The position numbers were made by a program, and so were the translations under genes. Source: Candidatus Calditenuaceae archaeon (lineage in GTDB: Archaea > Thermoproteota > Nitrososphaeria_A > Caldarchaeales > Calditenuaceae). From it: a stretch of DNA of 64,000 nucleotides. Below the pieces are notes generated by a model that was not told the DNA's origin, did not search any database, and saw only the letters and a list, made by a program, of their open reading frames with translations. The stretch lies in the NCBI GenBank assembly GCA_025058175.1, contig JANXED010000002.1, positions 44,505-108,504 on the forward strand, written 5' to 3'. Shown here one piece after another: positions 6,037-60,047 of this stretch (position 1 is its first letter; every line of letters starts with the position of its first letter).

Positions 6037-6037
6037 G

Positions 6038-8217: not shown

Positions 8218-8240
8218 CCTCGCGCCAGCTCCGTGCCGGA

Positions 8241-8248
8241 TTTAATAA
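8241..8248. promoter_or_regulatory. Shared TATA element between rps3ae and a luciferase-like oxidoreductase
   Basis: TTTAATAA reads as a good TATA box on both strands. On the minus strand its centre is about 27 nt from the rps3ae ATG; on the plus strand it is about 35 nt from the TTG at 8280. Only 62 nt separate the two divergent starts and no second AT-rich box is present, so one element probably serves both genes. Confidence 0.5.
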
Positions 8249-8279
8249 CCCCATCGAGGCCGCGTGAACCCGGGCAGGC

Positions 8280-9242
8280 TTGACCGCGGGTAAGCACTCG
8301 GGGCTACCCTCCCTCGGGATAGTCCTCGAGGGCGACAGGCCTCACGCCGAGCTGGTGCGCCTCGCCTCGCTCGCGGAGAGGCTCGGGTTCGACTCGGTCC
8401 ACCTCTACGAACATCTGCCCCACAGGCCGGCATGGGCGTCGGCTTTCCTCGTGGCTAGGGAGACCTCGATGGTCCGAGTGGGCCCGGTGACCGTGCCGGC
8501 GTTCGCCTACGTGCCGGTGGTCCTCGCGAGGTTCGCGGCCGCGCTGAGCGAGGTCGCGGGGAGCAGGGCGGTGCTCGGCGTCTCGAGGGGAGCCTTCGGG
8601 GAGCTGATCGGGAGAAAGAGGCCGAGCGTCAGCGAGTTCGTCGCGTACCTGAAGGCCCTTAACGGTCTCCTGGCCGGCGACCCGAGCCCTCCGGCGCTGG
8701 GCTGGGCCGTCGGGAAGACTCCGAGGCTCTACGTCGGGACCTCAGGGACGAGGCTCTGCGCGATCGCTGCTTCGCTGCGCTTCGTCTCGGGCATCGTGGT
8801 CGACAACCTCTGGGACCCGGAGTACGCGAGGTTGATGGCGACGACCGCGAGGGAGGCTAGGGCCTCGGCCTCCTCGGACCCTGAGGGCTTCGAGCTGGTC
8901 GCGAGGCCGTTCTGTTACGTCTCAGAAGATAGAAGAGAGGCGCTCTCGGCCCTCCTCCCAGTCCTGAGGGAGTACTTGGTCCAATTGGTCGGGAACTCGC
9001 CGATGCTCAGGCACGCGGGGCTCGACGTCGCTTCAGTGGAGGAGGCGCTCCGGGGGCCCTCCGACATGGCCGAGGAGGTCGCTAGGAGGTTCGCGTTCTT
9101 CGGGACCGTCGAGGAGCTCGAGCAGCAGCTGCGCGAGATATCGAAGTCCGGGGTTACTTTGGTCTGCCTCGGTTACCCCCTCGGCAAGGACCCGGAAGAG
9201 GCGATTAGGTCAGTCGGTAGTGCCCTGCTCCCGCGTCGGTAG
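8280..9242 (+). CDS. LLM-class (luciferase-like, probably F420-dependent) oxidoreductase
   Basis: 320 aa TIM-barrel protein of the bacterial luciferase/F420 reductase superfamily. Typical sequence: LPSLGIVLEGDRPHAELVRLASLAERLGFDSVHLYEH, then RETSMVRVGPVTVPAFAYVPVVLARFAAALSEV and RAVLGVSRGAFG. In archaea such proteins usually transfer hydride with coenzyme F420 (methylene-tetrahydromethanopterin reductase relatives). The substrate is unknown. TTG start about 35 nt after the shared TATA element. No neighbouring partner gene. Confidence 0.85.
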   Translation: MTAGKHSGLPSLGIVLEGDRPHAELVRLASLAERLGFDSVHLYEHLPHRPAWASAFLVARETSMVRVGPVTVPAFAYVPVVLARFAAALSEVAGSRAVLGVSRGAFGELIGRKRPSVSEFVAYLKALNGLLAGDPSPPALGWAVGKTPRLYVGTSGTRLCAIAASLRFVSGIVVDNLWDPEYARLMATTAREARASASSDPEGFELVARPFCYVSEDRREALSALLPVLREYLVQLVGNSPMLRHAGLDVASVEEALRGPSDMAEEVARRFAFFGTVEELEQQLREISKSGVTLVCLGYPLGKDPEEAIRSVGSALLPRR

Positions 9243-9293
9243 ACCGGCCGTCGCGTCGCTATACTTTTAAGAAGCCGACGTCGAATGACGCCG

Positions 9294-9824
9294 ATGCCCG
9301 CCGCCTACGCGAGGCTCAACGAGCTCTGGAGGGAGAGGCCGGAGGAGCTGGTGAGGCTCCTGAGGGAGAGGCGGATCGGGTGGAGGAGGGAGCCGTCGGT
9401 CGTGAGGGTCGAGAGGCCGCTCAGGCTCGACAGGGCGAGGCGGATCGGCTACAGGGCGAAGCAGGGCTTCGTCGTCCTGAGGGTCAGGGTGAGGAGGGGA
9501 GGTTTCGCGAGGCCGAGGCCGAACTCCGGGAGGAGGCCGAAGGCGCTGGGCGTCGTGAAGCACAAGGTAAACGTCACGGCGCTCGAGGAGGCGATCTCAA
9601 GGGTCAAGAGGAGGTACCCGAACCTCCACGTCCTGGGAGGATACCTCCTCACGTCGGACAGCCTCTACCAATGGTTCGAGGTGATCGCGGTCGACCCTTA
9701 CCACCCGTCCGTCTACAACGACCGGCAGCTGAGGATCCCCGACCCGCTCAGGAGGAGGGTAGTGAAGAGGCTCGCGAGGAGGGGCGTCAAGCCGGTCGGC
9801 CAGGTGCTCCAGCCGTTCGAATGA
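9294..9824 (+). CDS. rpl15e: Large-subunit ribosomal protein L15e
   Basis: 176 aa from the ATG at 9294; another ATG lies 9 nt upstream at 9285. The later start is preferred because the CTTTTAA box at about 9263-9269 is centred about 27 nt from it and MPAAYARLNELWRERPEELV is the usual N-terminus. Strongly basic, with RIGYRAKQGFVVLRVRVRRG and RPKALGVVKHKVN as in archaeal and eukaryotic L15e. The stop overlaps the ATG of the DUF309 gene (ATGA at 9821-9824). Confidence 0.95.
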   Translation: MPAAYARLNELWRERPEELVRLLRERRIGWRREPSVVRVERPLRLDRARRIGYRAKQGFVVLRVRVRRGGFARPRPNSGRRPKALGVVKHKVNVTALEEAISRVKRRYPNLHVLGGYLLTSDSLYQWFEVIAVDPYHPSVYNDRQLRIPDPLRRRVVKRLARRGVKPVGQVLQPFE

Positions 9825-10417
9825 CCCGAGCTCCGCGTCCGAGGCGTTACCTGATAGGCCTCTCAATCCTAGGGGCTGATCCGTCGGACCACCAGGCCCT
9901 CCTCTCCGAGGTGAGGTCGCTCCTGAGCGGGACCAGCGCTCAGGTCATCGAGGTGAGGATCTCCGACGCGAGGGTCGAGGTGGACCTGAGGACGGAGGCG
10001 ATCTCCGAGGCCCTCGAGGTGCTCGGAAAGCTCGGCGAGGTCCAGCACTGCGTCGAGGTTGGGGTCGAGGAGCCCGGCGCGGACCCCTTCGAGAGGGCGG
10101 TAAGGCTTTACACCGAGAGGAGGTACTGGGAGGCCCACGAGGCCCTCGAGTCGCTCTGGAGGAAGTCCGGGGGCCAGGAGAGGGCCCTGCTCAACGGGCT
10201 GATCCTGATCGCGGCGGCACACGTCAAGCTCCAGACCGGCGACCGGGAGGGATACTTCAGGCTCCTCAGGAGGGCCCTCGGGAGGCTCGAGGCGTCGGAG
10301 ATCCGGGAGTACAGGGGGCTCGACGTCAGTGCGATGGTTGATGCGATCAGGCAGGTCCTCGAGGAGGGCCGCACGGGCTTCGGGCTGATCCCGCTGGTCC
10401 GGAGAGGGGACGCGTAA
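9821..10417 (+). CDS. DUF309-domain protein
   Basis: 198 aa from the ATG that overlaps the L15e stop codon. An N-terminal region of about 80 residues resembles a small alpha/beta (ferredoxin-like) domain: RRYLIGLSILGADPSDHQALLSEVRSLLSG. The C-terminal part carries the DUF309 pattern, RYWEAHEALESLWR and LLNGLILIAAAHVKLQTGD, a helical domain of unknown function with conserved W, HE and H residues. Coupled translation with L15e suggests co-expression but does not reveal a role. The same frame stays open across the L15e gene; that upstream part is an artefact. Confidence 0.8.
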   Translation: MTRAPRPRRYLIGLSILGADPSDHQALLSEVRSLLSGTSAQVIEVRISDARVEVDLRTEAISEALEVLGKLGEVQHCVEVGVEEPGADPFERAVRLYTERRYWEAHEALESLWRKSGGQERALLNGLILIAAAHVKLQTGDREGYFRLLRRALGRLEASEIREYRGLDVSAMVDAIRQVLEEGRTGFGLIPLVRRGDA

Positions 10418-48906: not shown

Positions 48907-49686
48907 GTGGTAGAGGTCCACGTCTGCGTGAAGGAGAGCGTGGACGTCTCTAGCCTCGAGCACGACCCGAGGACCTTGAGCCCGCTGCTGGAGAAGGCGC
49001 AGAGGAAGGTGGGAGACTTCGAGATGAACGCCCTCGAGGAGGCGGTGAGGATCAAGGAGAGGCACGGCGGCGTCGTGAAGATCCTTTCGGTGGGGCCGGC
49101 GGTCCAGACGATCACGCTGAGGGAGGCGCTAGCGATCGGGGCCGACGAGGCCTACGTCGTCTCGTCGCCGGAGCTGAGGGACGCTGACCCGTGGGTCCTC
49201 GCGAACGTGCTGGCAGCGCTCTCTAAGAGGGCTGGGAAGGCAGACGTGATCGTATGCGGAGAGGCCTCGGTCGACGAGAGCAATTACCAGGTTGGCCCTA
49301 GGATCGCCGAGGAGCTCGGTATCCCCTCGCTGACCCACGTCTCGAGGCTAGAGATCAGCGACGGTAAGGCGATCGCTCAGAGATCACTGGAGGACGGGAT
49401 CGAAGTGGTGGAGGTCCGGCTCCCGGCAGTCTTCACCGTCGGCCTCGAGATCAACACGCCCAGGCTCCCGAGCCTCTTGATGATACGGGCCTCAGCGAAG
49501 AAGCCTATCCATCAGGTCCAGCTCCACGAGCTCGGGCTCCCACGCGAGAAGCTCACGCCGAAGGTGAAAACGACGTCCGTCAAGGTGATGAGGACCGAGA
49601 GGAAGAGGGTAGTCCTAGAGGGGAAGCCGGACGAGGTCGCGGAGAAGCTGATCGCGAGCCTCAGGAGCGATGGCGTCCTCAGGTGA
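48907..49686 (+). CDS. etfB: Electron transfer flavoprotein beta subunit
   Basis: 259 aa, alpha/beta FixA/EtfB fold. Opens with VEVHVCVKESVDVSS; the family core is EMNALEEAVRIKERHGGVVKILSVGP, LREALAIGADEAYVV and IVCGEASVDESNYQVGPRIAEELGIPS. Carries electrons from dehydrogenases to an ETF:quinone oxidoreductase or bifurcating complex. The alpha subunit and FixC/X are not adjacent. GTG start. Confidence 0.92.
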   Translation: MVEVHVCVKESVDVSSLEHDPRTLSPLLEKAQRKVGDFEMNALEEAVRIKERHGGVVKILSVGPAVQTITLREALAIGADEAYVVSSPELRDADPWVLANVLAALSKRAGKADVIVCGEASVDESNYQVGPRIAEELGIPSLTHVSRLEISDGKAIAQRSLEDGIEVVEVRLPAVFTVGLEINTPRLPSLLMIRASAKKPIHQVQLHELGLPREKLTPKVKTTSVKVMRTERKRVVLEGKPDEVAEKLIASLRSDGVLR

Positions 49687-49801
49687 GCTCAGGCCTCTTC
49701 GTGGCCCTGAGGTACTCGTAGACGACGTAGAGTACCATGCCCAGCGCGAAGGAGAGGAAGGCGTAGCCGTAGAACGCGTCGAACATCTGCTCCCAGGTCA
49801 T
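49679..49801 (-). CDS. 40-aa single-helix membrane protein
   Basis: ATG (49799-49801) to TGA. Sequence opens MTWEQMFDAFYGYAFLSFAL, continues through a membrane helix (LGMVLYVVYEYL) and ends in a short basic/acidic tail. A GTGATAAGTG box is centred about 26 nt upstream, the standard leaderless spacing. Its 3' end overlaps the end of etfB by 8 nt. Aromatic residues before the helix and a positive C-terminus suggest a small inserted subunit of some membrane complex. Unknown family. Confidence 0.5.
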   Translation of the reverse strand: MTWEQMFDAFYGYAFLSFALGMVLYVVYEYLRATKRPELT

Positions 49802-49926
49802 CGGGCTCTCCCCTGAGCGCCCACTTATCACCGTATCCTCGACAGTTTCCCCAAACGGCGGAGTTCTCGAGTCCGGTTAACATGGTCAGGCTGATATCAT
49901 CGACGGGACGGTCGGCGGCCAAAGGG

Positions 49927-50541
49927 ATGGAGCTCGAGGTGGAGACGCTCGTCGTCGGACCCTTGAGCACCAACTGCTACGTCGTCTCTAGCGGAGGGGA
50001 GGCACTGATCGTGGACCCCGGCTGGGACGCGGAGAGGGTCTTGAGGGCAGTGAGCGGGATGAAGGTGGTGGGTATAGTCGCGACCCATGGACACTTCGAC
50101 CACGTCGGCGCTGTAGAGGAGCTGAAGAGGAGGCTCGGCGTCGAGTTCGTGATCCACCGGCTCGACGAGGGACTGCTCGACGTCGCGGTCAACCACGGCG
50201 AGAGGTTCGGGTTGAGGTTCGAGAGGCCCAGGCCTGACAGGTTCATCGAGGAGGGCGAGAGGATCGAGTTGGGAGGCGTAGAGATCGAGGTGATCCACAC
50301 TCCGGGCCACAGCCCCGGGAGCGTCTGCCTCCGCGGGGCGTTCACTCTCTTCAGCGGCGACACGCTCTTCATGGGGTCGGTCGGGAGGACGGACATTTTC
50401 GGCGGGAGCTTCGAGCAGCTCGAGCGGTCGATCAGGGACAAGCTCTACGTCCTCGACGACGCGACCGTCGTCTACCCGGGCCATGGTCCCGCGACGACGA
50501 TCGGGTTCGAGAAGCGCCACAACCCATTCGTGAGGCCCTGA
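49927..50541 (+). CDS. Metallo-beta-lactamase-fold hydrolase (glyoxalase II-like)
   Basis: 204 aa from the ATG at 49927; an ATG at 49882 adds 15 residues that fall outside the fold, so the later start is preferred. Metal ligands are in THGHFDHVGA, HTPGHSPGS (His) and FSGDTLFMGSVGRTD (Asp), with a final YPGHGPATTIGFEKRHNPF. These are the marks of the YcbL/GloB hydrolase group, which cleaves thioesters such as S-lactoylglutathione analogues. Physiological substrate unknown. Lies upstream of the E1 operon but ends before its promoter. Confidence 0.88.
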   Translation: MELEVETLVVGPLSTNCYVVSSGGEALIVDPGWDAERVLRAVSGMKVVGIVATHGHFDHVGAVEELKRRLGVEFVIHRLDEGLLDVAVNHGERFGLRFERPRPDRFIEEGERIELGGVEIEVIHTPGHSPGSVCLRGAFTLFSGDTLFMGSVGRTDIFGGSFEQLERSIRDKLYVLDDATVVYPGHGPATTIGFEKRHNPFVRP

Positions 50542-50567
50542 GGCAATACTTTTAGCGCAGACGTGAA

Positions 50568-51272
50568 GTGAACGCCTCCGAGTTGGAGTTAGGCGACGTT
50601 TTCAGGACCGCGGTTCCACCCCTGTTGTCAGCTATGTTAGTCCTAGGAGTTGTCGTTCTGTTCCCCGGGCTGATCCCCGGGACCTACAAGGTCACGACCG
50701 CGACCGTTCCAGTCCCCGTCTTCACGACACGGTTCGTTAACGTCACGACGACCCTGACCACCGCCTACCTCGTCGACTCCCGGGGACCTGTTTGGGAGCC
50801 AGTGTTCGTGGACCTCTCGGAAAGGCCCACCGAGGGGACGATCACCGTCCTTAACAGGACGCTGACCAAGGAGAAGCCAGCGCTCGCAATAGTCTTCATA
50901 GCCGCGGCGCCCCGAGGTTACGAGTTCGCGAGCACGGTGAACGGCTTCGTCTACAGGCTCGAGGCTAAAGTCGCGAACAGGGTCACGGCGCTCGTCGCGG
51001 AGGCGTCACCTCCAGTCATCCCAGGGCTCAGCCGCGAGAACTTCAGGGACCTGCTGACGGAGAGGGCGTTCTCACCGGTTAACGTCCTGCCGTTCCAGAA
51101 CCCGAGGAGGACCGAAGTCTCACCGGGGCCCTTCACACTCCAGAGGGAGCGTGGAGCCTACGTGCCGTATCCGTGGCTCGCGATCTGGCCGATCTCGGTT
51201 CACCTCTACGGCATCGAGAGGGACGTCCACGTGACGGTCACGCTCTCCTACAGCCTGGTCGGGGCGAAGTGA
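50568..51272 (+). CDS. Membrane-anchored extracellular protein coupled to the E1 gene
   Basis: 234 aa. One membrane helix at about 15-40 (VPPLLSAMLVLGVVVLFPGLIPG) after a short acidic N-terminus, then a Thr/Val-rich, beta-type domain outside the cell (TTATVPVPVFTTRFVNVTTT). No family recognised. GTG start; a CTTTTAG box at 50549-50555 would suit the in-frame TTG at 50583 better. The stop overlaps the E1 start (GTGA at 51269-51272), so both come from one message. That coupling ties an envelope protein to ubiquitin-like activation. Confidence 0.65.
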   Translation: MNASELELGDVFRTAVPPLLSAMLVLGVVVLFPGLIPGTYKVTTATVPVPVFTTRFVNVTTTLTTAYLVDSRGPVWEPVFVDLSERPTEGTITVLNRTLTKEKPALAIVFIAAAPRGYEFASTVNGFVYRLEAKVANRVTALVAEASPPVIPGLSRENFRDLLTERAFSPVNVLPFQNPRRTEVSPGPFTLQRERGAYVPYPWLAIWPISVHLYGIERDVHVTVTLSYSLVGAK

Positions 51273-52111
51273 GGCAGGAGCTCGCGCGGCGGACTCGGGT
51301 CTTCGAGATCTTCAGGATGGACGAGGACCGGTATGAGCGGCAGAGGAGGCTCTGGGACCAGAGGAGGATATCGTCCCTGAAGGTCCTAGTGGGAGGTGCA
51401 GGGGCGCTCGGGAACGAGGTCGTGAAGAACCTGGTCCAGATCGGCGTGAAGAGGGTCTACGTCGTCGACTTCGACAGGGTCGTCCACTCGAACCTGAACA
51501 GGTGCCTCTTCTTCAGGAGAAGCGACGCGACCAAGAGGGCGAAGAAGGTCGATGCGCTCGCGAGGAGGGCCTCGGACCTCAACCCGGACGTGGAGGTCAT
51601 TCCGGTCTTCGGGGACATTCGCGACCTCCCGAGCGACGTGATCAAGGACGTCGACATGGCCCTTGGGGCCTTCGACAACCTCTTCGCTAGGCTCGTCCTC
51701 AACGCGATGTGCTACTCTAACGGTAAGCCCCTAGTTGACGGCGGAATGGAGGGGGTGCTCGGGACGGTCCAGGTCGTCCTCCCCCCGGAGAGCCCCTGCC
51801 TGGAGTGCGGGATGAGTGAGCGGGACCTCGAGCACATGTGGGAGAGGATCTCCTGCAGCGGCGACGTCGTCGTCGATGACGGTCCGAAGCTGCCCTACAT
51901 TCCAATGACCGGAGCCCTCGTCGGAGCTCTGCAGGTCATGGAGGCGGTCAAGATAGTCCTCGGCCTCGAGTCCTACAGGTCTTCCGGGAGGTGGAACGAG
52001 TCGGTCGGAGCACCCCTCGTCGGCAAGTCCCTCTTCATCGACCTCAGGTCCAACCTGAGCTACGCCTACGACCTCCACAAGAGGAGCGACTGCAACGTCT
52101 GCGCCCCCTGA
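51269..52111 (+). CDS. E1-like ubiquitin-activating enzyme (ThiF/MoeB/UBA fold)
   Basis: 280 aa from the GTG that overlaps the upstream stop. RYERQRRLW (21-29) is the family N-terminal motif. Nucleotide-binding VGGAGALGNEVVKNL has its glycine loop at 43-48. VVDFDRVVHSNLNR (65-78) supplies the ATP/Mg acidic residues and Arg. Zinc cysteines are C177/C180 (CLEC) and C275/C278 (CNVC). The best catalytic Cys is C196 in RISCSG, ahead of MTGALVGALQVMEAVK. Should adenylate the C-terminal Gly of the Ubl and pass it to the E2. MoeB or ThiF activity is an alternative, but the neighbouring Ubl, E2 and JAMM genes argue for ubiquitin-like activation. Confidence 0.92.
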   Translation: MRQELARRTRVFEIFRMDEDRYERQRRLWDQRRISSLKVLVGGAGALGNEVVKNLVQIGVKRVYVVDFDRVVHSNLNRCLFFRRSDATKRAKKVDALARRASDLNPDVEVIPVFGDIRDLPSDVIKDVDMALGAFDNLFARLVLNAMCYSNGKPLVDGGMEGVLGTVQVVLPPESPCLECGMSERDLEHMWERISCSGDVVVDDGPKLPYIPMTGALVGALQVMEAVKIVLGLESYRSSGRWNESVGAPLVGKSLFIDLRSNLSYAYDLHKRSDCNVCAP

Positions 52112-52165
52112 TCGGGCAGTCCTCGCCTCGACCCCTGCCCGTTTCTCTCGCGTTCTGTGTCAAGA

Positions 52166-52173
52166 TTTTATAG
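52166..52173 (+). promoter_or_regulatory. TATA box of the pilin-like gene
   Basis: TTTTATAG, centred about 27 nt before the GTG at 52196, so transcription is predicted to start at the first codon. The pilin-like gene therefore has its own promoter inside the ubiquitin-like cluster. Confidence 0.6.
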
Positions 52174-52195
52174 GTGCCACTAATTCACTCCACGC

Positions 52196-52609
52196 GTGGA
52201 AAGAACTAGGTCGAGGGCAGGCCTCAGCGAAGCCGTAACGGCCATTCTGCTGGTGGTGATCGGGATTGCGATGGCGCTCATGATCTGGCAGTTCTTCACA
52301 CCACGTCCGACTGAGGAGCTGAGAATAGGGCCCGTCGACGTCTCGGGAGGGGTGGTCGTCTTCACGGCGCAGAACGTCGGGAGCGTAGACGCGGAGATAA
52401 TCGGAGTCGCGTGCTACACCGCGGGACAGCCTCCGGCGGCCGGAGGAGGGGTGACTCCCTTGGGCGGCGCGGACACCAAGCTTCAGCAGGGCGAGTCGAG
52501 CACCTTCACCGGGAGCTGCGGAGGCGCGGAGCCAGGCAAGCCGATCAACGTGATGGTCTATACCAAGAACAAGGCCTACGGTCCTTTCACGGTCATCGTC
52601 AGGTCGTGA
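52196..52609 (+). CDS. Type IV pilin-like protein
   Basis: 137 aa. Class III signal peptide: basic ERTRSRAG, then LSEAVTAILLVVIGIAMALM, the typical archaeal pilin/archaellin N-terminus; prepilin peptidase should cut after Gly9. The rest is a beta-rich Gly/Pro domain with a likely disulfide pair (ACYT and GSCGG). Would be assembled into a pilus by the secretion ATPase/platform pair at 60.9-64 kb. It sits between the E1 and the Ubl-E2 genes in the same direction. Confidence 0.88.
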   Translation: MERTRSRAGLSEAVTAILLVVIGIAMALMIWQFFTPRPTEELRIGPVDVSGGVVVFTAQNVGSVDAEIIGVACYTAGQPPAAGGGVTPLGGADTKLQQGESSTFTGSCGGAEPGKPINVMVYTKNKAYGPFTVIVRS

Positions 52610-52688
52610 CGAGTTCACCTCCTCAACGAGAGTTGATTTTTCGCATTGATAATCGAGCAAACCCGCGTTCTTCGATTGACGAGAAACA

Positions 52689-52696
52689 CATATATC
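52689..52696 (+). promoter_or_regulatory. TATA box of the Ubl-E2 gene
   Basis: CATATATC, centred about 32 nt before the ATG at 52725, giving a leader of only about 5 nt. It implies a separate transcript for Ubl-E2, JAMM and the 55-aa protein. Confidence 0.55.
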
Positions 52697-52724
52697 ATGC
52701 CGGCACGAAGCAAACTTGATTGAC

Positions 52725-53546
52725 ATGATCGTTACCGTGAACGAGCTGACCACTAAGCGAAGCGTCAGGTTGGAGGTCGAGCCCGGCCACACGGTGAGGG
52801 CGGTCGTCGAGGAGGTGATGAAAGCGCTGAAGGTCCCGCCGCAGACGACGTACAGGCTGGTACTGGGCGGGAAGGAGATCGGGCCAGAACTCTTCGACAA
52901 GACGCTGGGCGAGCTGGGCATATCGGACGGTGCTGTGATGGACCTCGTCCCGAGGCCCGTCGGCGGATCAACCCTCTTGCCCAAGGAGAAGTTCCTGAAG
53001 AGGCTGGAGAGGGAGGAGGAGGACCTGAGGAACGGCGGGTACCCTTTCACCAGACAAGACGTCTGGAGTCCGATGAACTTCCCGATGGTCTACAGCGCAG
53101 GCTACGAGACGGTCAACGTGGCGGTGAGGTACACGGTCTCCTTCAGGGCCAGGGGGTTCGTCATGACGAAGAGGGGGATCGAGGAGCAGTGGGACCACTT
53201 GGCGAGCCTCTACGTCCTCGACTACTACCCCTACATGGATCCAAAGAAGGGTGCACCGATGAGGATATTCTGGGAGAGCGACATTTTCCACCCTAACATC
53301 TGCCCTGGGCCCCGCTTCAACGGAAACGGGCTCGTCTGCTGGAAGATGATCAAGGAATGGGGGAAGACCTTCTCGCTCGCGACGCTCGTGAGGGGGCTTC
53401 AGCTCCTCGTCGAGAACCCAAACCCCGAAGACCCGCTCAGCAAGATACCGATATGCATGCACGCAGCGTCCTTCTTCAAGGAGAACCCGCACCTCACGGG
53501 CACCTACAGGCCAGATACCGGAAGCAGGCCCAGAGTGATCGAATAG
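52725..53546 (+). CDS. Ubiquitin-like domain fused to an E2 conjugating domain
   Basis: 273 aa from the ATG at 52725 (TTG at 52716 is also in frame). Residues 1-77 read as a beta-grasp Ubl: IVTVNELTTKRSVRLEVEPG, a central helix (TVRAVVEEVMKAL), YRLVLGGKEI, and LGELGISDGAVMDLVPRP. Then comes Gly80-Gly81 and Ser82, exactly where a ubiquitin would end. Residues about 86-260 form an E2: an N-terminal helix (KEKFLKRLEREEEDL), FHPNI (His-Pro-Asn 189-191), catalytic Cys205 in GLVCWKMIKEW, and LLVENPNPEDPLSK. The HPN-to-Cys distance is longer than in most E2s. Either the fusion is cut after Gly-Gly or the Ubl acts in cis. Confidence 0.93.
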   Translation: MIVTVNELTTKRSVRLEVEPGHTVRAVVEEVMKALKVPPQTTYRLVLGGKEIGPELFDKTLGELGISDGAVMDLVPRPVGGSTLLPKEKFLKRLEREEEDLRNGGYPFTRQDVWSPMNFPMVYSAGYETVNVAVRYTVSFRARGFVMTKRGIEEQWDHLASLYVLDYYPYMDPKKGAPMRIFWESDIFHPNICPGPRFNGNGLVCWKMIKEWGKTFSLATLVRGLQLLVENPNPEDPLSKIPICMHAASFFKENPHLTGTYRPDTGSRPRVIE

Positions 53547-53556
53547 GTGCGAGGAC

Positions 53557-54039
53557 TTGAGGGGAGAGGAGGCGGGCGTCCTCCCCGTCTACGTCGAGCT
53601 GGAGGCCCTCGTTAAGGCCGTCAGGCACTGTAGGGAGGGACTGCCTTACGAGGTCATCGGTTTCCTGATTGGAGAGCGGCTGAGGTGGAGGGACAAGCTC
53701 TACGTCTTAATCACCGACACCGTGAGGGGTAGGTCGGTTCAAACCCGCACCTACGTCGAGTTCGATCAGGACGCGCTGGCGGAGGTCGCGGGGCTCATCA
53801 GGGAGGAACACCCGGACGCTGAGATCGTGGGCTGGTACCACTCTCACCCGGGATACGGTTGCTTCATGTCCCCTACTGACATTCGCTCCCATACGACCTG
53901 TTTCCCCTATCCACATCAGGTCGCGCTCGTCATCGACCCAGTCAGAGGCGAGGCCTCGTTCTTCAAGGTCGATGGGGAAGGGGATTACCGAACCGTCCCA
54001 TCTGCGGTGGTGAGGAGGACGCGTGGTCAGGATCGTTGA
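53557..54039 (+). CDS. Rpn11-like JAMM/MPN+ deubiquitinase
   Basis: 160 aa. The complete JAMM zinc motif is present: Glu32 (YEVIGFLIG), His95 and His97, Ser105 and Asp108 in HSHPGYGCFMSPTD. The HSHPGxGC form is that of Rpn11/CSN5-type isopeptidases more than of bacterial RadC-like JABs. Expected to cleave after the Gly-Gly of the Ubl, maturing the fusion or removing Ubl from targets. TTG start 10 nt after the Ubl-E2 stop, so the same message. The 3' end overlaps the next small gene by 17 nt. Confidence 0.93.
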   Translation: MRGEEAGVLPVYVELEALVKAVRHCREGLPYEVIGFLIGERLRWRDKLYVLITDTVRGRSVQTRTYVEFDQDALAEVAGLIREEHPDAEIVGWYHSHPGYGCFMSPTDIRSHTTCFPYPHQVALVIDPVRGEASFFKVDGEGDYRTVPSAVVRRTRGQDR

Positions 54040-54190
54040 GGTAAGGGAGAGGGACGTCAGGGAGGCTCCGCCCCCCGTTGACGGGGAATACGAGCTGATA
54101 GCTGTCGACTGGGAAGGCGTCGGTTACGATCTCTCGGACCTTTTGAGCCAGTTGGAAGATGAAGCGAGCAGGGCTCGGACGGAAGACTAG
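54023..54190 (+). CDS. 55-aa acidic protein overlapping the JAMM gene
   Basis: GTG at 54023 to TAG at 54190. Reads VVRIVEVRERDVREAPPPVD, then EYELIAVDWEGVGYDLSDLL and an acidic end. Alternating hydrophobic strands followed by a helix suggest a small folded protein. Codon choice resembles its neighbours. It overlaps the JAMM 3' end by 17 nt in another frame and stops 4 nt before the convergent helical gene ends. No family recognised; could be a partner or substrate of the cascade. Not checked for conservation. Confidence 0.5.
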   Translation: MVRIVEVRERDVREAPPPVDGEYELIAVDWEGVGYDLSDLLSQLEDEASRARTED

Positions 54191-54194
54191 GCGG

Positions 54195-54974
54195 TCAGGG
54201 TCCACGTCCTTCCGTGCCTCTTCGCGATATGCCCATGACGGCGGCCTTCGACTCGTTCAGGGCCTTCGCTAGAAGGCGCTCCTTCGGGCCGAGCCTCGTC
54301 CCCAGCGCGCTAAGGGCGAAGTCGATCTCGGAGGTGACCAACCTCGCGACCTCCTCGATAAGTGGTTCAAGGGCACTCGAGCCCGACTCGTACTCCCTAA
54401 GGAGGACAGCCAAGTCGTCGCCGATGTAGAGGGCCCTGTAGATCGACCGATCAAGCCTCTTGTAGAGTTTCCTGGAGATCCTGATGAGCCGCAGCTCCCA
54501 GAGGGCGAGGTCCAGCAGCGCCCGAGCCTCCCTCTCCCTGCCGAGGGACTTCAGTATTCCGAGCGACGCTACTGCGCCGATGAACGCCCTGTAGAGTTTG
54601 CCAGCCTCAGCGACCGTGAGGGGGATCAGCTTGGTGTTGAGCATGAAAGCGATCTGCGCCTCGTCCTTCAACGTGAGGACACTCTTCGCCTCCTCGCCGA
54701 TGGCCTTGGCTAGGTCCTCCTTGCTCTGCTGGTCTGCCAACAGCGATGACGACTGTTCTCTGACGTCCGTCCACGACTTGCTCACGGCCAGCATCTTATC
54801 GAGGAGCGCCCCTATCGAGGACTCCCCAATCAACGGCGCCTCGGAGACGTAAAGTACAGTTGGAGGCGGTAGAACGTATTGATTCACCTTTAGGACCTTG
54901 GGTCTGCTTCTCTTCAGCGACTCAGTTCGCCCCCGAAAGAAGAGAGAGCCCGACCGATGTCCGCCACGACTCAT
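54195..54974 (-). CDS. Helical cytoplasmic protein in the pilin-like operon
   Basis: 259 aa, predominantly alpha-helical, no membrane helix. After a basic, low-complexity 30-residue start comes a helical body (LLDKMLAVSKSWTDVREQSS, ALLDLALWELRLIRISRKLYK, IEEVARLVTSEIDFALSAL). No family recognised. Its ATG overlaps the stop of the pilin-like gene upstream (ATGA at 54971-54974). Third gene of a minus-strand operon that starts at 56166. Could be a cytoplasmic partner of the pilus parts. Confidence 0.65.
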   Translation of the reverse strand: MSRGGHRSGSLFFRGRTESLKRSRPKVLKVNQYVLPPPTVLYVSEAPLIGESSIGALLDKMLAVSKSWTDVREQSSSLLADQQSKEDLAKAIGEEAKSVLTLKDEAQIAFMLNTKLIPLTVAEAGKLYRAFIGAVASLGILKSLGREREARALLDLALWELRLIRISRKLYKRLDRSIYRALYIGDDLAVLLREYESGSSALEPLIEEVARLVTSEIDFALSALGTRLGPKERLLAKALNESKAAVMGISRRGTEGRGP

Positions 54975-55429
54975 CCCCTGCTCACCGCTAGGATCCCGAC
55001 CCTATCAGCGGAACAGGTAAGCCTCGCGGTCCACGCGGAGAACGACCTGGTCGGGTCATAAGTTCCCCAGACGACCGAGAAGAGCCTGTGGCCTATCACG
55101 ACGGTACCGTCGGAGTTCCTGACCAGCTTGATGACCGTGAAGTTCACTGAGACGCTCGGCGGTGCAACTGACGCGATGATGGCGAGGGCCTCGTCGACGG
55201 GGATGCCGTCCTCCCGGCATACTAGGGCCTCCATCTGACCGCGCTCCGTCAGGGCCGCGACCATTTTGTTAGCGAGCTCCTCGAGGTCATTCCTCTGCTC
55301 AGAGACCGAGACGGTCTTCATGGAGACGATCTGATAGAAGAGGACAATCCCTATGACAATGATGATTGAGGCCAGGATCGCCTCAACGGTCCAAACCATC
55401 CCGAGACGCCTGGAGCTCGACGTCCTCAT
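54971..55429 (-). CDS. Pilin-like single-helix membrane protein
   Basis: 152 aa from the ATG that overlaps the previous stop (ATGA at 55426-55429). N-terminus RTSSSRRLGMVWTVEAILAS runs into IIIVIGIVLFYQIV: basic residues, Gly, then a hydrophobic helix, as in class III signal peptides (cut after RRLG). The extracellular part has two cysteines (VCRED and LTCSAD) that could pair, and ends GILAVSRG. Predicted minor pilin or pilus-associated protein. Confidence 0.7.
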   Translation of the reverse strand: MRTSSSRRLGMVWTVEAILASIIIVIGIVLFYQIVSMKTVSVSEQRNDLEELANKMVAALTERGQMEALVCREDGIPVDEALAIIASVAPPSVSVNFTVIKLVRNSDGTVVIGHRLFSVVWGTYDPTRSFSAWTARLTCSADRVGILAVSRG

Positions 55430-56166
55430 GACACACCACCCGACCAAGCCCAGACCTCCACGCTCAGGGTCACCCCGTTCTCTGATACGGTCGTCTCCGA
55501 AAGGTAAACCGCATCGGGCGGTATCGAGACCCTGGACGGCTCGACAAAGCGGCCCTTCACGAACGCCACCACTAATTCGGGGTATACAGCCGGCACGACG
55601 TGATAAGAAGACTCCGTGAAGACCACCACGGGCGACTCGAAGATAATCGGTGCGATCTCGTAACCGGACTCGACTACCGTTGACCCACCGTAATAGCAGA
55701 GGCTTGCGCTTCCAGAGACCCGTGTAGTTCCGTCTTCCCCGTAATTCACGAGGCGGGGATCGAGCCGCAGGCCCCTCACGAGGACGCCGTACTGCGTCAC
55801 TACGATCGTACCCCCGCCTCCTGTCGCGCAGGTCGTGTAATCGGACGGGAACGAGAGGGCGACAGCAGGGCCCGATTGCACTATCCTCTGCGTGAACGAG
55901 ACCCTTGCGACGAAGTCGACCCTGATTCCCCTGAAGTCGTAGGAAGGCGCTCCCACGTAGGCGGGGTTCAGGAAGAAGGCGTCCCTCGAGGACCTGGAGA
56001 CGAGCGATTTGATGAGGTTAAGGGCCGCCCTCGACTCGACGCGGACCATCGCGTCCTCAGTGAAGGAGAGGTAGCTCGATGCTCCGGAGAGCGCGGAGAA
56101 GACTACTAGACCAGCGACTAGCGCGAAGAGCGAGACCCCGATTGCCGCGTCAACCACCGCCTCCAT
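55426..56166 (-). CDS. Pilin-like membrane protein with large beta-rich domain
   Basis: 246 aa. The N-terminal helix (AAIGVSLFALVAGLVVFSAL) begins almost at residue 1, without a basic prepilin leader. An extracellular region of about 200 residues follows, rich in beta strands, with two cysteines (TTCATG, SLCYYG). First gene of a three-gene operon on the minus strand. The ATG lies about 28 nt from an ATAAGC element at 56192-56197. Looks like a pseudopilin or tip-type component; family unrecognised. Confidence 0.65.
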   Translation of the reverse strand: MEAVVDAAIGVSLFALVAGLVVFSALSGASSYLSFTEDAMVRVESRAALNLIKSLVSRSSRDAFFLNPAYVGAPSYDFRGIRVDFVARVSFTQRIVQSGPAVALSFPSDYTTCATGGGGTIVVTQYGVLVRGLRLDPRLVNYGEDGTTRVSGSASLCYYGGSTVVESGYEIAPIIFESPVVVFTESSYHVVPAVYPELVVAFVKGRFVEPSRVSIPPDAVYLSETTVSENGVTLSVEVWAWSGGVS

Positions 56167-56170
56167 TCTC

Positions 56171-56205
56171 GGTATATATCGGTCACCAACAGATAAGCAT
56201 AATGC
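56171..56205. promoter_or_regulatory. Divergent promoter region between the pilin-like operon and the RING gene
   Basis: Two AT-rich elements, GGTATATATC (56171-56180) and AGATAAGCATAATG (56191-56204), lie in the 79-nt gap. The second fits leaderless transcription of the leftward operon; either could serve the rightward RING gene with a leader of about 20-45 nt. Shared control of envelope and RING genes is possible. Confidence 0.45.
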
Positions 56206-56245
56206 TGACTAGGGAAGGCAGATCTGTGAGAACGATTTATTACGT

Positions 56246-56572
56246 ATGAGCGCGGGGAGCGGCGGATTGGAGGACCTGCTCAAGAGGCTGAGGCTGGAGA
56301 TCGTCGGCGACTTCAGGCAGTACCTGAACGCGCTTGAGCAGACCGGGGACGGCTCCTGGGAGGTGGCACTGACCGAGAAGGCAGAGGCCTTCGCGGGAAC
56401 GATGGAGTGTCCGGTCGATAGGGAGGAGGTGCGGATCGAGGAGAGCGTGCTGTGCCCCATCTGTTACACGCCATATCACGTGGACTGTGCCAAGATCCTC
56501 GCCAGCAGGTCGGAGAAGTGCTGGAAGTGCGAGCGGTTCGACAGGTTCGACCTCCTTCTGAGGGGCAGGTGA
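56246..56572 (+). CDS. Small RING-like zinc-finger protein (candidate E3)
   Basis: 108 aa. The N-terminal 50 residues are helical (LEDLLKRLRLEIVGDFRQYL). The C-terminal part has the order C55-P-V-D58, C70-P-I-C73, H78, C81, C92-W-K-C95, resembling prokaryotic RING fingers of the CPVD...CPICxTPYHxDC...CWKC type. One expected first-site ligand is Asp (D58) rather than Cys. By comparison with the small RING protein of the Caldiarchaeum cluster, a ligase role with the E2 is likely. Six nt upstream of the next gene, so an operon. Confidence 0.78.
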   Translation: MSAGSGGLEDLLKRLRLEIVGDFRQYLNALEQTGDGSWEVALTEKAEAFAGTMECPVDREEVRIEESVLCPICYTPYHVDCAKILASRSEKCWKCERFDRFDLLLRGR

Positions 56573-56578
56573 CGCAAA

Positions 56579-57436
56579 ATGAGCCTGGAGCACGAGGCGA
56601 GTCGTCGGATCCTGATCAGCCTGCTGACTGATCCTCACAGGTCAGGCAGGACAATTTACTTCGACCCAGATGCGCTATCGGCGAGGCTGGGTGGACAGGC
56701 ATGGGACCACCTCGAGGCGATGATCGAGCTGGGCGAGAAGGGGCTCATCAAGTTCCACTTCACCAAGGAAGTGGAACTTCTGTTCAGGTTCATACGCGCA
56801 AGGGCGAGGCTTGAGCACGTGGCCGGGTTGAAAGAGGTGGATGAGGTCGCCGACGAGCTGAGGAAGGCGAAGATCCTCGGCAGGATCGTAGGGAGGGACC
56901 TCGAGGTGATTAGGGATCAGAGGGTTCCTGACCACCTCGAGGCGCTCAGGGCCCTCTCGGTTCAACTCGGCAAGCTGCTGAAGCTCCTCGAGGGGAAGAA
57001 ACTGGTCAGCAGGGAGGTCTACGAGATGGTTGCAGCGTCAGTGCTGTCCCAGACCGCTAACGTCGTTCAGTCTACGGAGCAGGTCCTCTCCTCTCTCAGG
57101 ACGGCCCTAGCCGAACTCGTGGAGGTGATGAACGCATTGATTCAAGAGCGGGCGAGGATATTGGGGCTCCGCGACAGGCTAGGCTTCAATCTCGAGGAGC
57201 TCGACTTGGTGTCGAACTCCTACCTCTCGGGCATCGAGGAGTTCAGGCGCCTCCTTCAGCAGATCGATCGACTGTTGAGGGGAGCCATACCGAACTGGGA
57301 CGAGGTGATAGGGTCAGCTCAAAAGATGAGCTCGGAGTTCGCGCAGAGGGCGCCATTCGTTGACGTCGTCCTTAAACAGATGACCTCCATCAACGAGATG
57401 CTGAAGGCTGGAATTGAGACTGAACTTGGCCGATGA
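56579..57436 (+). CDS. Winged-helix-like plus coiled-coil protein, operon partner of the RING protein
   Basis: 285 aa, soluble. The first 65 residues look like a winged helix (SRRILISLLTDPHRSGRTIY, then WDHLEAMIELGEKGLIKF). The rest is long helices with coiled-coil character (VLSSLRTALAELVEVMNALI, IEEFRRLLQQIDRLLR). No known family. Follows the RING gene by 6 nt. Its layout parallels the convergent gene at 57390-58466, whose end it overlaps by 47 nt. Confidence 0.7.
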   Translation: MSLEHEASRRILISLLTDPHRSGRTIYFDPDALSARLGGQAWDHLEAMIELGEKGLIKFHFTKEVELLFRFIRARARLEHVAGLKEVDEVADELRKAKILGRIVGRDLEVIRDQRVPDHLEALRALSVQLGKLLKLLEGKKLVSREVYEMVAASVLSQTANVVQSTEQVLSSLRTALAELVEVMNALIQERARILGLRDRLGFNLEELDLVSNSYLSGIEEFRRLLQQIDRLLRGAIPNWDEVIGSAQKMSSEFAQRAPFVDVVLKQMTSINEMLKAGIETELGR

Positions 57437-58466
57437 GGAACTTCACCCTCTTGACCTCCTCGGTGACCCCCTCGAGTACCTTAAGCGCCCGCTGGAGCCT
57501 ATCGATGGAACCGTTCACGAAGTTGAGGTTGAGGTCTGAGCCTACCCGGAGCAGGCTTCTCATGGCATCGAGCTGCTCGCGCAACCTCTCGATGCTCCTC
57601 TCGAGGACCTCAACGTCTGTTTTACGCCTGCGAGTGAGCTCAGAGGCCCTCCTGGTCAACTCATGATAAAGGAAGTCGTACTCATCTTGGCTGATCTCGC
57701 CTATGCCGAGTCTCGCCTTGAGGAGCTCGAACTCTAACTTCAACTCGGCGGGAATGTCCTCCTGACCCTCGTCCTCAAGGAACTGCTTCGCAAACGACTC
57801 TAGGACCTCCTCGACCACCTCGTTTGACCAGGACGCGGTCGCGACGAGCTGCTCGGGCTGGAGGTCTCCGATGATGGTTCTCAGCAAGTCCGCCTCGAGC
57901 TTCTCCCGAACCTTTGAGAGGGTCTCCAGGGCCTCGCTCCCGAGACCTTTCGACCCCTCGAGCATCACCATAGACTCCTCGACCTCCCTCAGCGACCTCA
58001 GAAGGTCCTCGATCACCGCTGAGTTCCGGTCCTTCGATCCCAGGTAGTTGATCAGCGAGGAGATTAGCAGCGACCTCCTCCTGAGCAGAACGCCCATGAG
58101 GCTCGGCGAGGGCGGGACGTCATTGAGCGACGACCCGGGGATCGACAGCACGAGCTCCGTCATGACCCTCCTTACGCTCTCGTACTCGTACTCCTCGACC
58201 TTCCCGGACATGAATCCGTAGTCGAGCAGCCGGATCGCTTGGATCAGCATCTCCTTGGCCTCCTCATGGTCGGGGACTCCGACGATCGAGACCAGCCCGA
58301 GGGACTGCAGCCTGATCAGCCCCATCAGGACCTTCAGCTCATCGAGCCTGACGGCCTCCGCGGCCCCCTTCAGATCCACACGGACTCTGCCCCCCCTCCT
58401 CGGTAGCGAGGTCAGGTGCTGGATCAGCCGCACGTCCTCCTCCCTTATGCTCAACCCGCACCTCAC
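57390..58466 (-). CDS. Winged-helix-like plus coiled-coil protein
   Basis: 358 aa from a GTG; a TTG at 58454 fits the TTTTATTC box near 58483-58490 better. N-terminal 60 residues resemble a winged helix (IREEDVRLIQHLTSLPRRGG, LDELKVLMGLIRLQSLGLV). Long helical segments follow, including FELLKARLGIGEISQDEYDF (short C-terminal SHOCT-like pattern) and LERSIERLREQLDAMRSLL. No membrane helix. Family unknown. Architecture is like the convergent neighbour at 56579, suggesting two partner scaffold proteins. Confidence 0.68.
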   Translation of the reverse strand: MRCGLSIREEDVRLIQHLTSLPRRGGRVRVDLKGAAEAVRLDELKVLMGLIRLQSLGLVSIVGVPDHEEAKEMLIQAIRLLDYGFMSGKVEEYEYESVRRVMTELVLSIPGSSLNDVPPSPSLMGVLLRRRSLLISSLINYLGSKDRNSAVIEDLLRSLREVEESMVMLEGSKGLGSEALETLSKVREKLEADLLRTIIGDLQPEQLVATASWSNEVVEEVLESFAKQFLEDEGQEDIPAELKLEFELLKARLGIGEISQDEYDFLYHELTRRASELTRRRKTDVEVLERSIERLREQLDAMRSLLRVGSDLNLNFVNGSIDRLQRALKVLEGVTEEVKRVKFLIGQVQSQFQPSASR

Positions 58467-58523
58467 CAGCCGTGCCGAATAAAAGCCGTTCGTGGGACAT
58501 TAGGGGTGAGGGAACCTCTCACG

Positions 58524-60047
58524 TCAGGTCAAGTACTTCGTGCCTCCATGGACGAGCGCCCTGTAGACGACCGCCGCGAAGGCCGCTACGTACACCGAAG
58601 CGGCCGCGATGACCGTCGGCGTCGGGGAGCTGGCCAAAGGTTCGAAAGTCCTGAGGACGAGAACCGGGAGGGAGAGGAGGGCGGAGCCAGCTAGAGGGAC
58701 GACGATGAAGACCAGCGAGCCCAGCGAGAGCGGCGATGACTCGATCCTGACAGTCAGGGACGTGAGCACCGCGAGCGCCGAGCCGAAGTAGGACATGGAC
58801 GCGAGCAGGATCAGGTCCACCGCGAGGAACGGCAACTCCCCGACGCCTACCGAGACGAGCGAGTAGAGGAAGAGCGAGAACGGCAGGGTCACGGTCACGT
58901 AAGCCAGCAGGAGGCCCGAGAGGTACGGCCTCTCGCTCCAAGGTGACATCTTGACCAACCAAAGGTTCCTCCGCTCCGAGAGGCCCCAGTTTATCGCCAG
59001 CAGGGCAGGGAGCAGGGGGACGTAGAGCGCAATCATCGTGAGCTGGGCCAGCTCGGGGAACGTGAACGACCCCATAATTCTCGGGACCGCGATGTTACCG
59101 AGCGTGAGCAAAACGAGGACCGTCGCACCCGTGAAAAGGCTACCCTCCCTGGCGACCCTCGTGAGGTGTAGGGCGTACATCAGTCCGGTTAGGCGGGAAC
59201 TGGCCCTAAGTCCGAGCACCCGTAACAGGGCAGCTGGGACCGCAACGCGGCCCGTGATCATCGTGGGCCTGTCCATTAACGCCGAGACCAGCAAGGGCGT
59301 TACCGAGGGGTAGAAGTTCGTCCCGGAGAGCCGAACGTAAACCGCCAGCGAGGCCGCGACGTAAGGAAGCAAGTACAGGAGGACTGAAGTTGAGCCTTCG
59401 GTCACCGCGTGGGAGAGGATCAGGGCTGGGTGATAACTGAGCTCTGACGGCCGGGGGACTCCGAGCGCGGAGAGGCCCAAGGGCATCAGGACCGACGCCA
59501 TTAGACCCCAGCCGAGCAACCTCGAACCCCTGTCGCCTAACTTCGTCCTCGAGAGCCCGATCACGTGGGACAGCATGATCGCCATCACCATCGCGATCGC
59601 GTAGCACGGTATGGCGACCGCTAGGTACGTCACATGGGCCGGGTAAGTGATTGTCCCAATCATGAGGGCGACTGGCGGAACGACGAAGAGGGAGAGCATG
59701 ACGAACTGGAAGATCGCGTCCGAGACTAGGAAGGTCCTCGGCTTCACGCGCGACGGCAAGACGAAGTCGATCTCGTAGGGGAAGGCGGTGACCCCACCCT
59801 TCAGGCCGAGGTATATGCCGGCAGCCATGACGGCGGCCATGGTGACCTCGGTCAGGACCGGAAGGAAGCCCGCGGGGCCTGACCCCGACACGACGCCCGC
59901 GACCCGGAGCGCGAGCGAGAAGAGGCCGGTCCCGACGAGCCAGAGTCCATAGACGATGAACAAGAAGACGACGTTCCTCGGCCTACCGACGACGGGCCCC
60001 AAGTATTGGCGGAGTTTGACCCTCAGGAGGACGAAAGCGACCCTCAT
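58524..60047 (-). CDS. ABC-2-type exporter, membrane subunit
   Basis: 507 aa with about 11-12 membrane helices and short loops (VVFLFIVYGLWLVGTGLFSL, MLSLFVVPPVALMIGTITYP, LLLASMSYFGSALAVLTSL). The size and helix density fit large ABC-2 permeases. Start overlaps the end of the ATPase gene by 4 nt (60044-60047), so the pair forms one exporter. Cargo unknown. It lies between the ubiquitin-like cluster and the pilus ATPase. Confidence 0.82.
   Translation of the reverse strand: MRVAFVLLRVKLRQYLGPVVGRPRNVVFLFIVYGLWLVGTGLFSLALRVAGVVSGSGPAGFLPVLTEVTMAAVMAAGIYLGLKGGVTAFPYEIDFVLPSRVKPRTFLVSDAIFQFVMLSLFVVPPVALMIGTITYPAHVTYLAVAIPCYAIAMVMAIMLSHVIGLSRTKLGDRGSRLLGWGLMASVLMPLGLSALGVPRPSELSYHPALILSHAVTEGSTSVLLYLLPYVAASLAVYVRLSGTNFYPSVTPLLVSALMDRPTMITGRVAVPAALLRVLGLRASSRLTGLMYALHLTRVAREGSLFTGATVLVLLTLGNIAVPRIMGSFTFPELAQLTMIALYVPLLPALLAINWGLSERRNLWLVKMSPWSERPYLSGLLLAYVTVTLPFSLFLYSLVSVGVGELPFLAVDLILLASMSYFGSALAVLTSLTVRIESSPLSLGSLVFIVVPLAGSALLSLPVLVLRTFEPLASSPTPTVIAAASVYVAAFAAVVYRALVHGGTKYLT

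What the first reader, a model, noticed from the sequence alone, without database searches (positions are those of the whole stretch)
51269..56572. Complete ubiquitin-like cascade in about 5.3 kb of archaeal DNA
Seen: an E1-like enzyme (glycine loop, RYERQ, two CxxC pairs), a Ubl joined to an E2 with HPN and catalytic Cys, an Rpn11-type JAMM with all zinc and acid residues, and a small RING-like protein. Known: a Ubl, E1, E2, small RING and Rpn11 cluster is described for Candidatus Caldiarchaeum subterraneum. Here the gene order differs, Ubl and E2 are one chain, and other genes are interleaved. Inferred: a working conjugation and deconjugation pathway in a distinct form.
Basis: partly seen in the sequence, partly recalled or inferred. 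Interest (0 to 1): 0.95.

Follow-up and report, generated by a model that had tools for sequence, protein, structure and literature searches.

The report
Archaeal ubiquitin-like modifier fused to E2
A hot-spring archaeon carries genes for a divergent ubiquitin-like tagging system in which the tag and its carrier enzyme are encoded as one chain joined at an invariant Gly-Gly, and a neighbouring protease is predicted to cut the chain there, much as eukaryotes release ubiquitin from fusion precursors.

Summary
In detail: window 51269-56572 encodes an E1-like adenylyltransferase, a Ubl-E2 single chain, an Rpn11-type JAMM and a small RING-like protein, conserved in four genomes of one genus (Candidatus Calditenuis, Caldarchaeales). 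One correction: it is not a rearranged Caldiarchaeum operon. All three congeners held also carry the canonical Ubl, E2, E1 cluster and an Rpn11 elsewhere; the window set is a second cassette whose E1, E2 and JAMM each fall outside the canonical Caldarchaeales clade. The modifier is joined to the E2 at PR-P-[VI]-GG: Gly-Gly in 10 of 10 distinct fusions, two or three variable residues before the E2's usual start, no free copy found. In published work C. subterraneum E1 rejects extended ubiquitin and its Rpn11 cuts linear fusions after Gly-Gly, so the best reading is a Ubl-E2 precursor predicted to be cut by the adjacent JAMM. Nothing was assayed. Against: a separate archaeal Ubl-E2 fusion lineage keeps Gly-Gly in only 3 of 7 members; Cys196 of this E1 is shared with MoeB-type rows; the RING has Asp for one ligand and misses all Pfam cut-offs. 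New variant of a known kind.

The parts
51269..52111 (+). E1' : compact ThiF/E1-like adenylyltransferase, 280 aa, GTG start (ATG alternative at 51317); Cys196 at the crossover-loop position; no C-terminal ubiquitin-fold domain
   Evidence: Pfam, alignments, tree; canonical E1 C-terminus hits the ubiquitin family, E1' does not
52725..53546 (+). Ubl-E2 fusion, 273 aa
   Evidence: continuous frame in 4 genomes and 6 further metagenome proteins; alignments
52725..52967 (+). Ubl half, residues 1-81, ending PRPVGG
52962..52967 (+). Gly80-Gly81, predicted cleavage site after Gly81
   Evidence: 10 of 10 distinct fusions; dN 0 over RPVGG
52968..53543 (+). E2 half, residues 82-273; HPN at 53289-53297, catalytic Cys205 at 53337-53339
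53557..54039 (+). JAMM', Rpn11-type protease, 160 aa, TTG start; 10 bases after Ubl-E2
54023..54190 (+). p55, small conserved protein overlapping JAMM'; unknown role
   Evidence: 4 of 4 genomes
54195..54974 (-). helical protein of the conserved block; unknown role
   Evidence: no Pfam match over cut-off
54971..55447 (-). membrane-anchored, pilin-like N-terminus (by eye); DUF7288 just under cut-off
55426..56166 (-). membrane-anchored, pilin-like N-terminus (by eye)
56246..56572 (+). RING', small RING-like protein, 108 aa; CxxD-x11-CxxC-x4-HxxC-x10-CxxC
56579..57436 (+). helical protein next to RING' in 4 of 4 genomes; in G155 a helical protein carries a RING-like C-terminus in one chain
57390..58466 (-). 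helical protein of the conserved block
52196..52609 (+). pilin-like gene (by eye) between E1' and Ubl-E2; present in G002, not found at the G001 locus

Best explanation
This cassette encodes a divergent ubiquitin-like system whose modifier and E2 are one chain joined at Gly80-Gly81, and the neighbouring JAMM protease likely cuts that chain after the Gly-Gly to release an activatable modifier and an E2 with a near-native N-terminus. Shown by sequence: all parts, the invariant junction, conservation in four genomes, presence beside the canonical cascade in three congeners, and descent apart from it. Inferred: after the cut, E1' would adenylate the Ubl C-terminus and pass it, probably through Cys196, to Cys205 of the E2; RING' with its helical partner would direct it to substrates; JAMM' would also remove it. 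The fusion would supply modifier and E2 in equal amounts and keep the modifier inactive until JAMM' acts. Substrates are unknown; the membrane-anchored neighbours hint at a cell-surface role (a guess).
For: Gly-Gly in 10 of 10 distinct fusions, with variable residues right after it. dN 0 over RPVGG, 0.29-0.42 over the five linker codons, against three congeners (few codons). The E2 starts where unfused E2s start (MLP, MPELP), so the join is at the natural end of one protein and the natural start of the other. No free copy of this Ubl in G001-G003. JAMM' is the next gene in 4 of 4 genomes, and its best solved relative is C. subterraneum Rpn11 (E 6e-24). Published: full-length C. subterraneum pro-ubiquitin is refractory to E1 until Rpn11 exposes Gly-Gly (PMC5654768 section 6); CsRpn11 cuts linear CsUb fusions, and a three-residue linker lets it cut ahead of folded DHFR (PMC6043591 sections 13-14). 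The residue after the site is S, A, I or L in the fusions.
Against: No activity was tested. A separate archaeal Ubl-E2 fusion lineage has Ala-Gly in 4 of 7 members, so fused Ubls can persist without a clean Gly-Gly; CsRpn11 cuts the corresponding Gly77Ala mutant much more slowly. Folded DHFR without a linker blocked CsRpn11, and the linker here is only two or three residues. Cys196 is shared with MoeB-type rows. RING' misses all Pfam cut-offs. An internal start could yield free E2 without cleavage: Met stands at the junction in 5 of 10 fusions and TTG codes Leu85 in the window.
Confidence: 0.6

Rival explanations
1. The chain stays whole: the Ubl is a built-in domain that docks the E2 on E1' (replacing the missing ubiquitin-fold domain) or regulates the E2, and the modifier that is conjugated is the canonical Ubl.
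For: E1' lacks the C-terminal domain that in canonical E1s scores as ubiquitin-like, so another way to recruit E2 is needed; the other fusion lineage has lost Gly-Gly in 4 of 7 members.
Against: Gly-Gly is kept in 10 of 10 while the next residues vary; a docking domain needs no Gly-Gly; JAMM' next door would have no obvious substrate of its own.
Confidence: 0.27
2. A sulfur-carrier system of SAMP/Urm1/MoaD type: E1' and the Ubl serve sulfur transfer and the E2-like half has another role.
For: E1' is short and shares Cys196 and both CxxC pairs with MoeB-type rows; its best NCBIfam matches are ThiF and MoeB models, all far below their cut-offs; best single PDB stretch is 85.1 bits for UBA1 against 80.4 for MoeB.
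Against: HPN and Cys205 of the E2 are invariant in 10 of 10 and the E2 fold is clear; a separate MoeB-rhodanese protein is present in G001-G003 and does not group with E1'.
Confidence: 0.06
3. A decaying duplicate of the canonical cluster with no present function.
For: It exists beside the canonical cluster.
Against: Low dN with high dS over Ubl and E2, catalytic residues invariant, and trees that place E1', E2' and JAMM' outside the canonical clade.
Confidence: 0.03

Closest known systems
Candidatus Caldiarchaeum subterraneum ubiquitin operon (PMC5654768, PMC6043591)
   Same: Ubl, E1, E2, Rpn11-type JAMM and small RING; Ubl made as a precursor extended beyond Gly-Gly
   Different: There the Ubl is a separate gene with a nine-residue tail; E1 has an insertion and a ubiquitin-like C-terminal domain; here Ubl and E2 are one chain, E1 is compact, and all three enzymes are of another lineage
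G155 cassette (unnamed Thermoproteota genome, L099)
   Same: E1', E2', JAMM' of the same lineages in one operon; a helical protein with a RING-like end on the other strand; a candidate Ubl with Gly-Gly plus a 19-residue tail
   Different: Candidate Ubl and E2 are separate genes, with E1' between them; the candidate Ubl is not confirmed by profile methods
Ubl-E2 fusion of the other archaeal type (L125; P0176-P0181)
   Same: Ubl joined to E2 at the modifier's C-terminus with almost no linker
   Different: Other E1 and E2 lineages; Gly-Gly in 3 of 7, Ala-Gly in 4 of 7
Eukaryotic ubiquitin fusions to ribosomal proteins L40 and S27a (PMC11354881, passages)
   Same: Modifier made as the N-terminal half of a fusion and joined through Gly-Gly
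   Different: The partner here is the system's own E2, and the candidate protease is encoded next to it
Bacterial polyUbl fused to an E2-like domain (PMC1779556, passages)
   Same: Ubl and E2-like fold in one chain
   Different: The bacterial E2-like domain is described as inactive and the Ubl is repeated; here one Ubl and an E2 with HPN and Cys

Membership tests
Caldiarchaeum-type archaeal ubiquitin cascade | Ubl, E1, E2, JAMM and RING genes together | tested here: met
   All five activities present in 5.3 kb, RING only by spacing and weak similarity
Caldiarchaeum-type archaeal ubiquitin cascade | Separate Ubl gene | tested here: not met
   Single chain in 4 of 4 genomes
Caldiarchaeum-type archaeal ubiquitin cascade | E1, E2 and JAMM in the canonical Caldarchaeales clades | tested here: not met
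   Canonical rows form clades of their own: E1 100/96, E2 100/99, JAMM 95/97
Caldiarchaeum-type archaeal ubiquitin cascade | E1 with ubiquitin-like C-terminal domain | tested here: not met
   E1' ends at its second CxxC; canonical E1 C-terminus hits PF00240, at E up to 0.17
E2 (UBC) enzyme | UBC fold, HPN and catalytic Cys | tested here: met
JAMM/Rpn11 protease | E and HxHx7Sx2D | tested here: met
   best PDB matches CsRpn11
RING finger | Eight zinc ligands in cross-brace spacing | tested here: inconclusive
   Seven positions invariant in 7 aligned rows, ligand 2 is Asp in the four genus proteins; under Pfam cut-offs
SAMP/Urm1 system | No E2 required (recalled; also PMC11354881 passage) | tested here: not met
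   An E2 with intact motif is part of the set
CBASS-type E1-E2 protein | E1 and E2 domains in one chain (recalled) | tested here: not met
   E1' is a separate gene; PADLOC E1-E2 models match only its ThiF part
Ubiquitin fusion precursor | Cut after Gly-Gly by a deubiquitinase | not testable with these tools
   Gly-Gly is at the junction; cleavage needs an assay

The most novel reading that the evidence does not exclude
One archaeal genus runs two separately inherited ubiquitin-like cascades side by side, and the second makes its modifier only as a ubiquitin-E2 polyprotein that its own JAMM must cut before the cascade can start; joining the modifier to its E2 at its C-terminal glycines has arisen at least twice in archaea.
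Probability: 0.5. Interest if true: 0.88.

Novelty: new variant of a known kind. Interest (0 to 1): 0.76.

Why it matters
It would be a natural precursor whose cleavage by the deconjugating enzyme yields modifier and E2 in equal amounts, and a case of two ubiquitin-like cascades that must be kept apart in one archaeal cell. Three small proteins from a thermophile make it directly testable. It also ties compact E1s without a ubiquitin-fold domain to real E2s in archaea, which bears on how the eukaryotic E1 was built up.

Tried and rejected
Considered and rejected: a frameshift or assembly artefact (continuous frame in four genomes and six further metagenome proteins); a rearranged canonical operon; an anti-phage system (PADLOC: E1-E2 models match the ThiF part of E1' up to E 8.5e-15, JAB models match JAMM' up to 1.4e-5, and two other proteins match at 0.0017-0.0092 only).

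Weak or led nowhere: Rfam scan of 49000-60000 at gathering cut-offs, 0 matches. The G155 candidate Ubl has no Pfam match and hhalign against the fusion profile gave E 0.57; its identity rests on position, length and the Gly-Gly tail. p55 against the tail of a G155 membrane protein: 16 columns, probability 4%. RING' against the G155 RING-like end: probability 8%. The helical families did not match each other or the G155 and G342 helical proteins. First AF2 model poor (pLDDT 65; residues 78-84 under 50); in the better one residues 78-86 are coil but not under 50. The listed PDB fold rows cover residues 81-260, so the Ubl half was not tested by fold. In the E2 tree three type-3 fusion rows kept their Ubl half because the script looked for GG; columns filled in under 30% of rows were dropped. 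Of the eight rows labelled Asgard there, three carry Asgard names. In alignment A8, P0001 and L024 are the same protein; with L023 there are 10 distinct fusions. P0008 (chimeric second half) was read but not aligned. Literature searches were word searches in open-licence papers only; no supplementary file was read.
Full report
What is there. On the + strand lie E1' (51269-52111), a pilin-like gene (52196-52609), Ubl-E2 (52725-53546), JAMM' (53557-54039) and p55 (54023-54190); on the - strand a helical protein and two genes with pilin-like N-termini by eye (54195-56166); then on + RING' (56246-56572) and a helical protein (56579-57436), and on - another helical protein (57390-58466). Pfam: ThiF 2.7e-46, UQ_con 2.2e-7, JAB 3.8e-14; the Ubl half at 5e-5, a little under the cut-offs; RING' under all cut-offs.

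Where it is. The window's genome, G000, is in the same genus and 57% complete. The fusion is found in 4 of the 44 genomes searched in the order, and these are the four genomes of the genus; of 398 genomes drawn from the phylum 13 have some match and the same 4 the full-length fusion. Of 55 proteins found in the large protein set, P0001-P0007 are fusions at 62-90% identity (P0007 lacks its N-terminus), P0008 is fused but chimeric, and the other 47 are 156-193 aa, too short for both halves; P0009 comes from a 711-base contig and may be cut.

A second cassette. In 3 of 3 congeners the canonical Ubl, E2 and E1 lie together at another place (L022, L025, L026) and a canonical Rpn11-like JAMM at yet another. 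E2 hits: two in each congener, one in each of the eight other family members, one in the incomplete window genome. E1 tree, 51 rows: 12 canonical rows are one clade (100/96), 3 MoeB-rhodanese rows another (100/100), and a branch at 99/97 parts both from E1' and the type-3 E1s; E1' as a whole is held together at 94/82 and inner branches there are partly weak. E2 tree, 43 rows: canonical 10 rows 100/99, fused 8 rows 100/100; a branch at 97/96 puts the fused E2s with unfused archaeal E2s, G155 and the rows labelled Asgard. JAMM tree, 18 rows: window, G002, G001 and G155 group at 97/94, apart from 10 canonical rows at 95/97; G155's branch is long. So the parts were inherited apart from the canonical set, and together as far as these trees resolve.

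The unfused sister. G155 (L099) has on one strand a 105-aa ORF with RVVGG and a 19-residue tail (9781-10098), E1' (8961-9851), E2' (8318-8959) and JAMM' (7846-8328); on the other strand a 434-aa helical protein ends in a RING-like motif (5396-6700). The Ubl nature of the 105-aa ORF is not backed by profile methods. The Calditenuis fusion is thus probably the derived state (inference).

The junction. The order is Ubl, PRP, V or I, GG, two or three residues, LP, first E2 helix; unfused E2s start MLP or MPELP. Gly-Gly is in 10 of 10 distinct fusions; the next residue is S in 4, A in 4, I in 1, L in 1. Against G002, G003 and G001, dN is 0 for RPVGG, 0.006-0.065 for the Ubl, 0.08-0.19 for the E2, and 0.29-0.42 for the five linker codons (four against G001), while dS is 1.1-1.5 for the Ubl and 0.6-0.7 for the E2. 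The glycine codons differ between genomes. Invariant columns: Ubl 45 of 76, E2 78 of 187, gaps skipped. Aligned with ubiquitin, Leu8, Val46 and Val75 fall on the Leu8-Ile44-Val70 patch, Lys50 on Lys48 and Arg77 on Arg72 (ubiquitin numbering recalled); Val46, Lys50, Val75 and Arg77 are in 10 of 10 rows.

Why cleavage is the best reading. In G001-G003 the ubiquitin-family search finds three places each: canonical Ubl, fused Ubl and the C-terminus of canonical E1; no free copy of the fused Ubl (the genomes are 73-91% complete). Locus L029 matches C. subterraneum: its Ubl is 87 aa with Gly77-Gly78-Cys79-Gly80-Glu81, as in the paper's mutants. [quoted passage not shown] CsRpn11 cuts CsUb-GFP and CsUb-lactalbumin fusions; stably folded DHFR blocked it unless a short linker was put in; Cys79Gly sped cleavage, Cys79Glu and Gly80Trp stopped it (PMC6043591 sections 13-14). 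This is analogy; JAMM' itself is 36% identical to that enzyme and was not tested.

Against. Another Ubl-E2 fusion exists in a different archaeal type (G342, L125:9569-10444). With P0176-P0181 there are seven: L125, P0176 and P0179 have Gly-Gly; P0177, P0178, P0180 and P0181 Ala-Gly. There the fused state may not depend on a clean cut. The E2 tree keeps the two kinds of fusion apart, so at least two joins occurred. Free E2 could also come from an internal start: Met stands at the junction in 5 of 10 fusions, and Leu85 of the window is TTG.

E1'. Adenylation residues R24, R78, K93 and D136 are in all 51 rows; Cys196 is in 6 of 6 genus rows, 24 of 24 other E1' rows, 6 of 6 type-3 rows and 3 of 3 MoeB rows, and in 0 of 12 canonical rows at that column, whose insertion moves it. 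Against solved structures UBA1 scores 118.7 bits over several stretches (best 85.1) and MoeB 80.4. E1' must recruit its E2 without a ubiquitin-fold domain; whether an uncut Ubl-E2 helps is the main rival.

E3 and surroundings. RING' shares seven of eight ligand positions with L029, L030 and G155. RING' and the helical gene at 56579 are adjacent in 4 of 4 genomes, and G155 has a helical protein with a RING-like end in one chain, which suggests a joint E3, though the helical parts are not detectably alike. A nine-gene block is kept in G001 although its two halves are swapped.

In print. The C. subterraneum work is as cited (PMC5654768: section 6 and passages; PMC6043591: sections 6, 13, 14 and passages). 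PMC6053391 (passages) states a ubiquitin system for all six Aigarchaeota bins. PMC1779556 (passages) has a bacterial polyUbl fused to an inactive E2-like domain. Passages of PMC11354881 and PMC10547907 add nothing on Calditenuis. In searches I found no report of a second cascade in Calditenuis or of a Ubl fused to an intact E2 in archaea; supplementary files, where the 2017 paper details its clusters I-III, could not be read.

Noticed in passing
L125:9569-10444 (-) and P0176-P0181: An independent Ubl-E2 fusion in another archaeal type, with Gly-Gly in 3 of 7 and Ala-Gly in 4 of 7 members.
   Followed up: partly
L125:4687-6474, L127:10180-11757, L128:6013-7617, L129:5674-7257: In the type-3 clusters the JAMM domain is the N-terminus of a 525-595 aa protein with what looks by eye like a membrane helix and a long outer domain, which suggests a membrane-bound deconjugating enzyme.
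   Followed up: no
L099:5396-6700: A 434-aa helical protein with a RING-like C-terminus beside the unfused cassette; the window has helical protein and RING' as neighbouring genes.
   Followed up: partly
L099:7158-7874 (-) and window 54023-54190: The gene after JAMM' in G155 is a membrane protein whose tail holds a PPP motif resembling p55 (ETPPPSPPDYQLI against EAPPPVDGEYELI); hhalign support is poor.
   Followed up: partly
52690-52695: TATA-like ATATAT 30 bases before the Ubl-E2 ATG (by eye), consistent with a promoter of its own for Ubl-E2, JAMM' and p55.
   Followed up: no
54971-56166 (-) and 52196-52609: Pilin-like membrane-anchored genes are interleaved with the cassette; the two on the - strand are kept in 4 of 4 genomes.
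   Followed up: partly
P0178, P0253: Archaeal-type E2 proteins filed under bacterial MAG names (Fervidobacterium sp., Methylomirabilota); misbinning or transfer.
   Followed up: no
52160-53050 (-): A 296-aa open frame antisense to the pilin-like and Ubl-E2 genes; only shorter antisense frames are seen in relatives, so most likely a by-product of GC-rich codon use.
   Followed up: no
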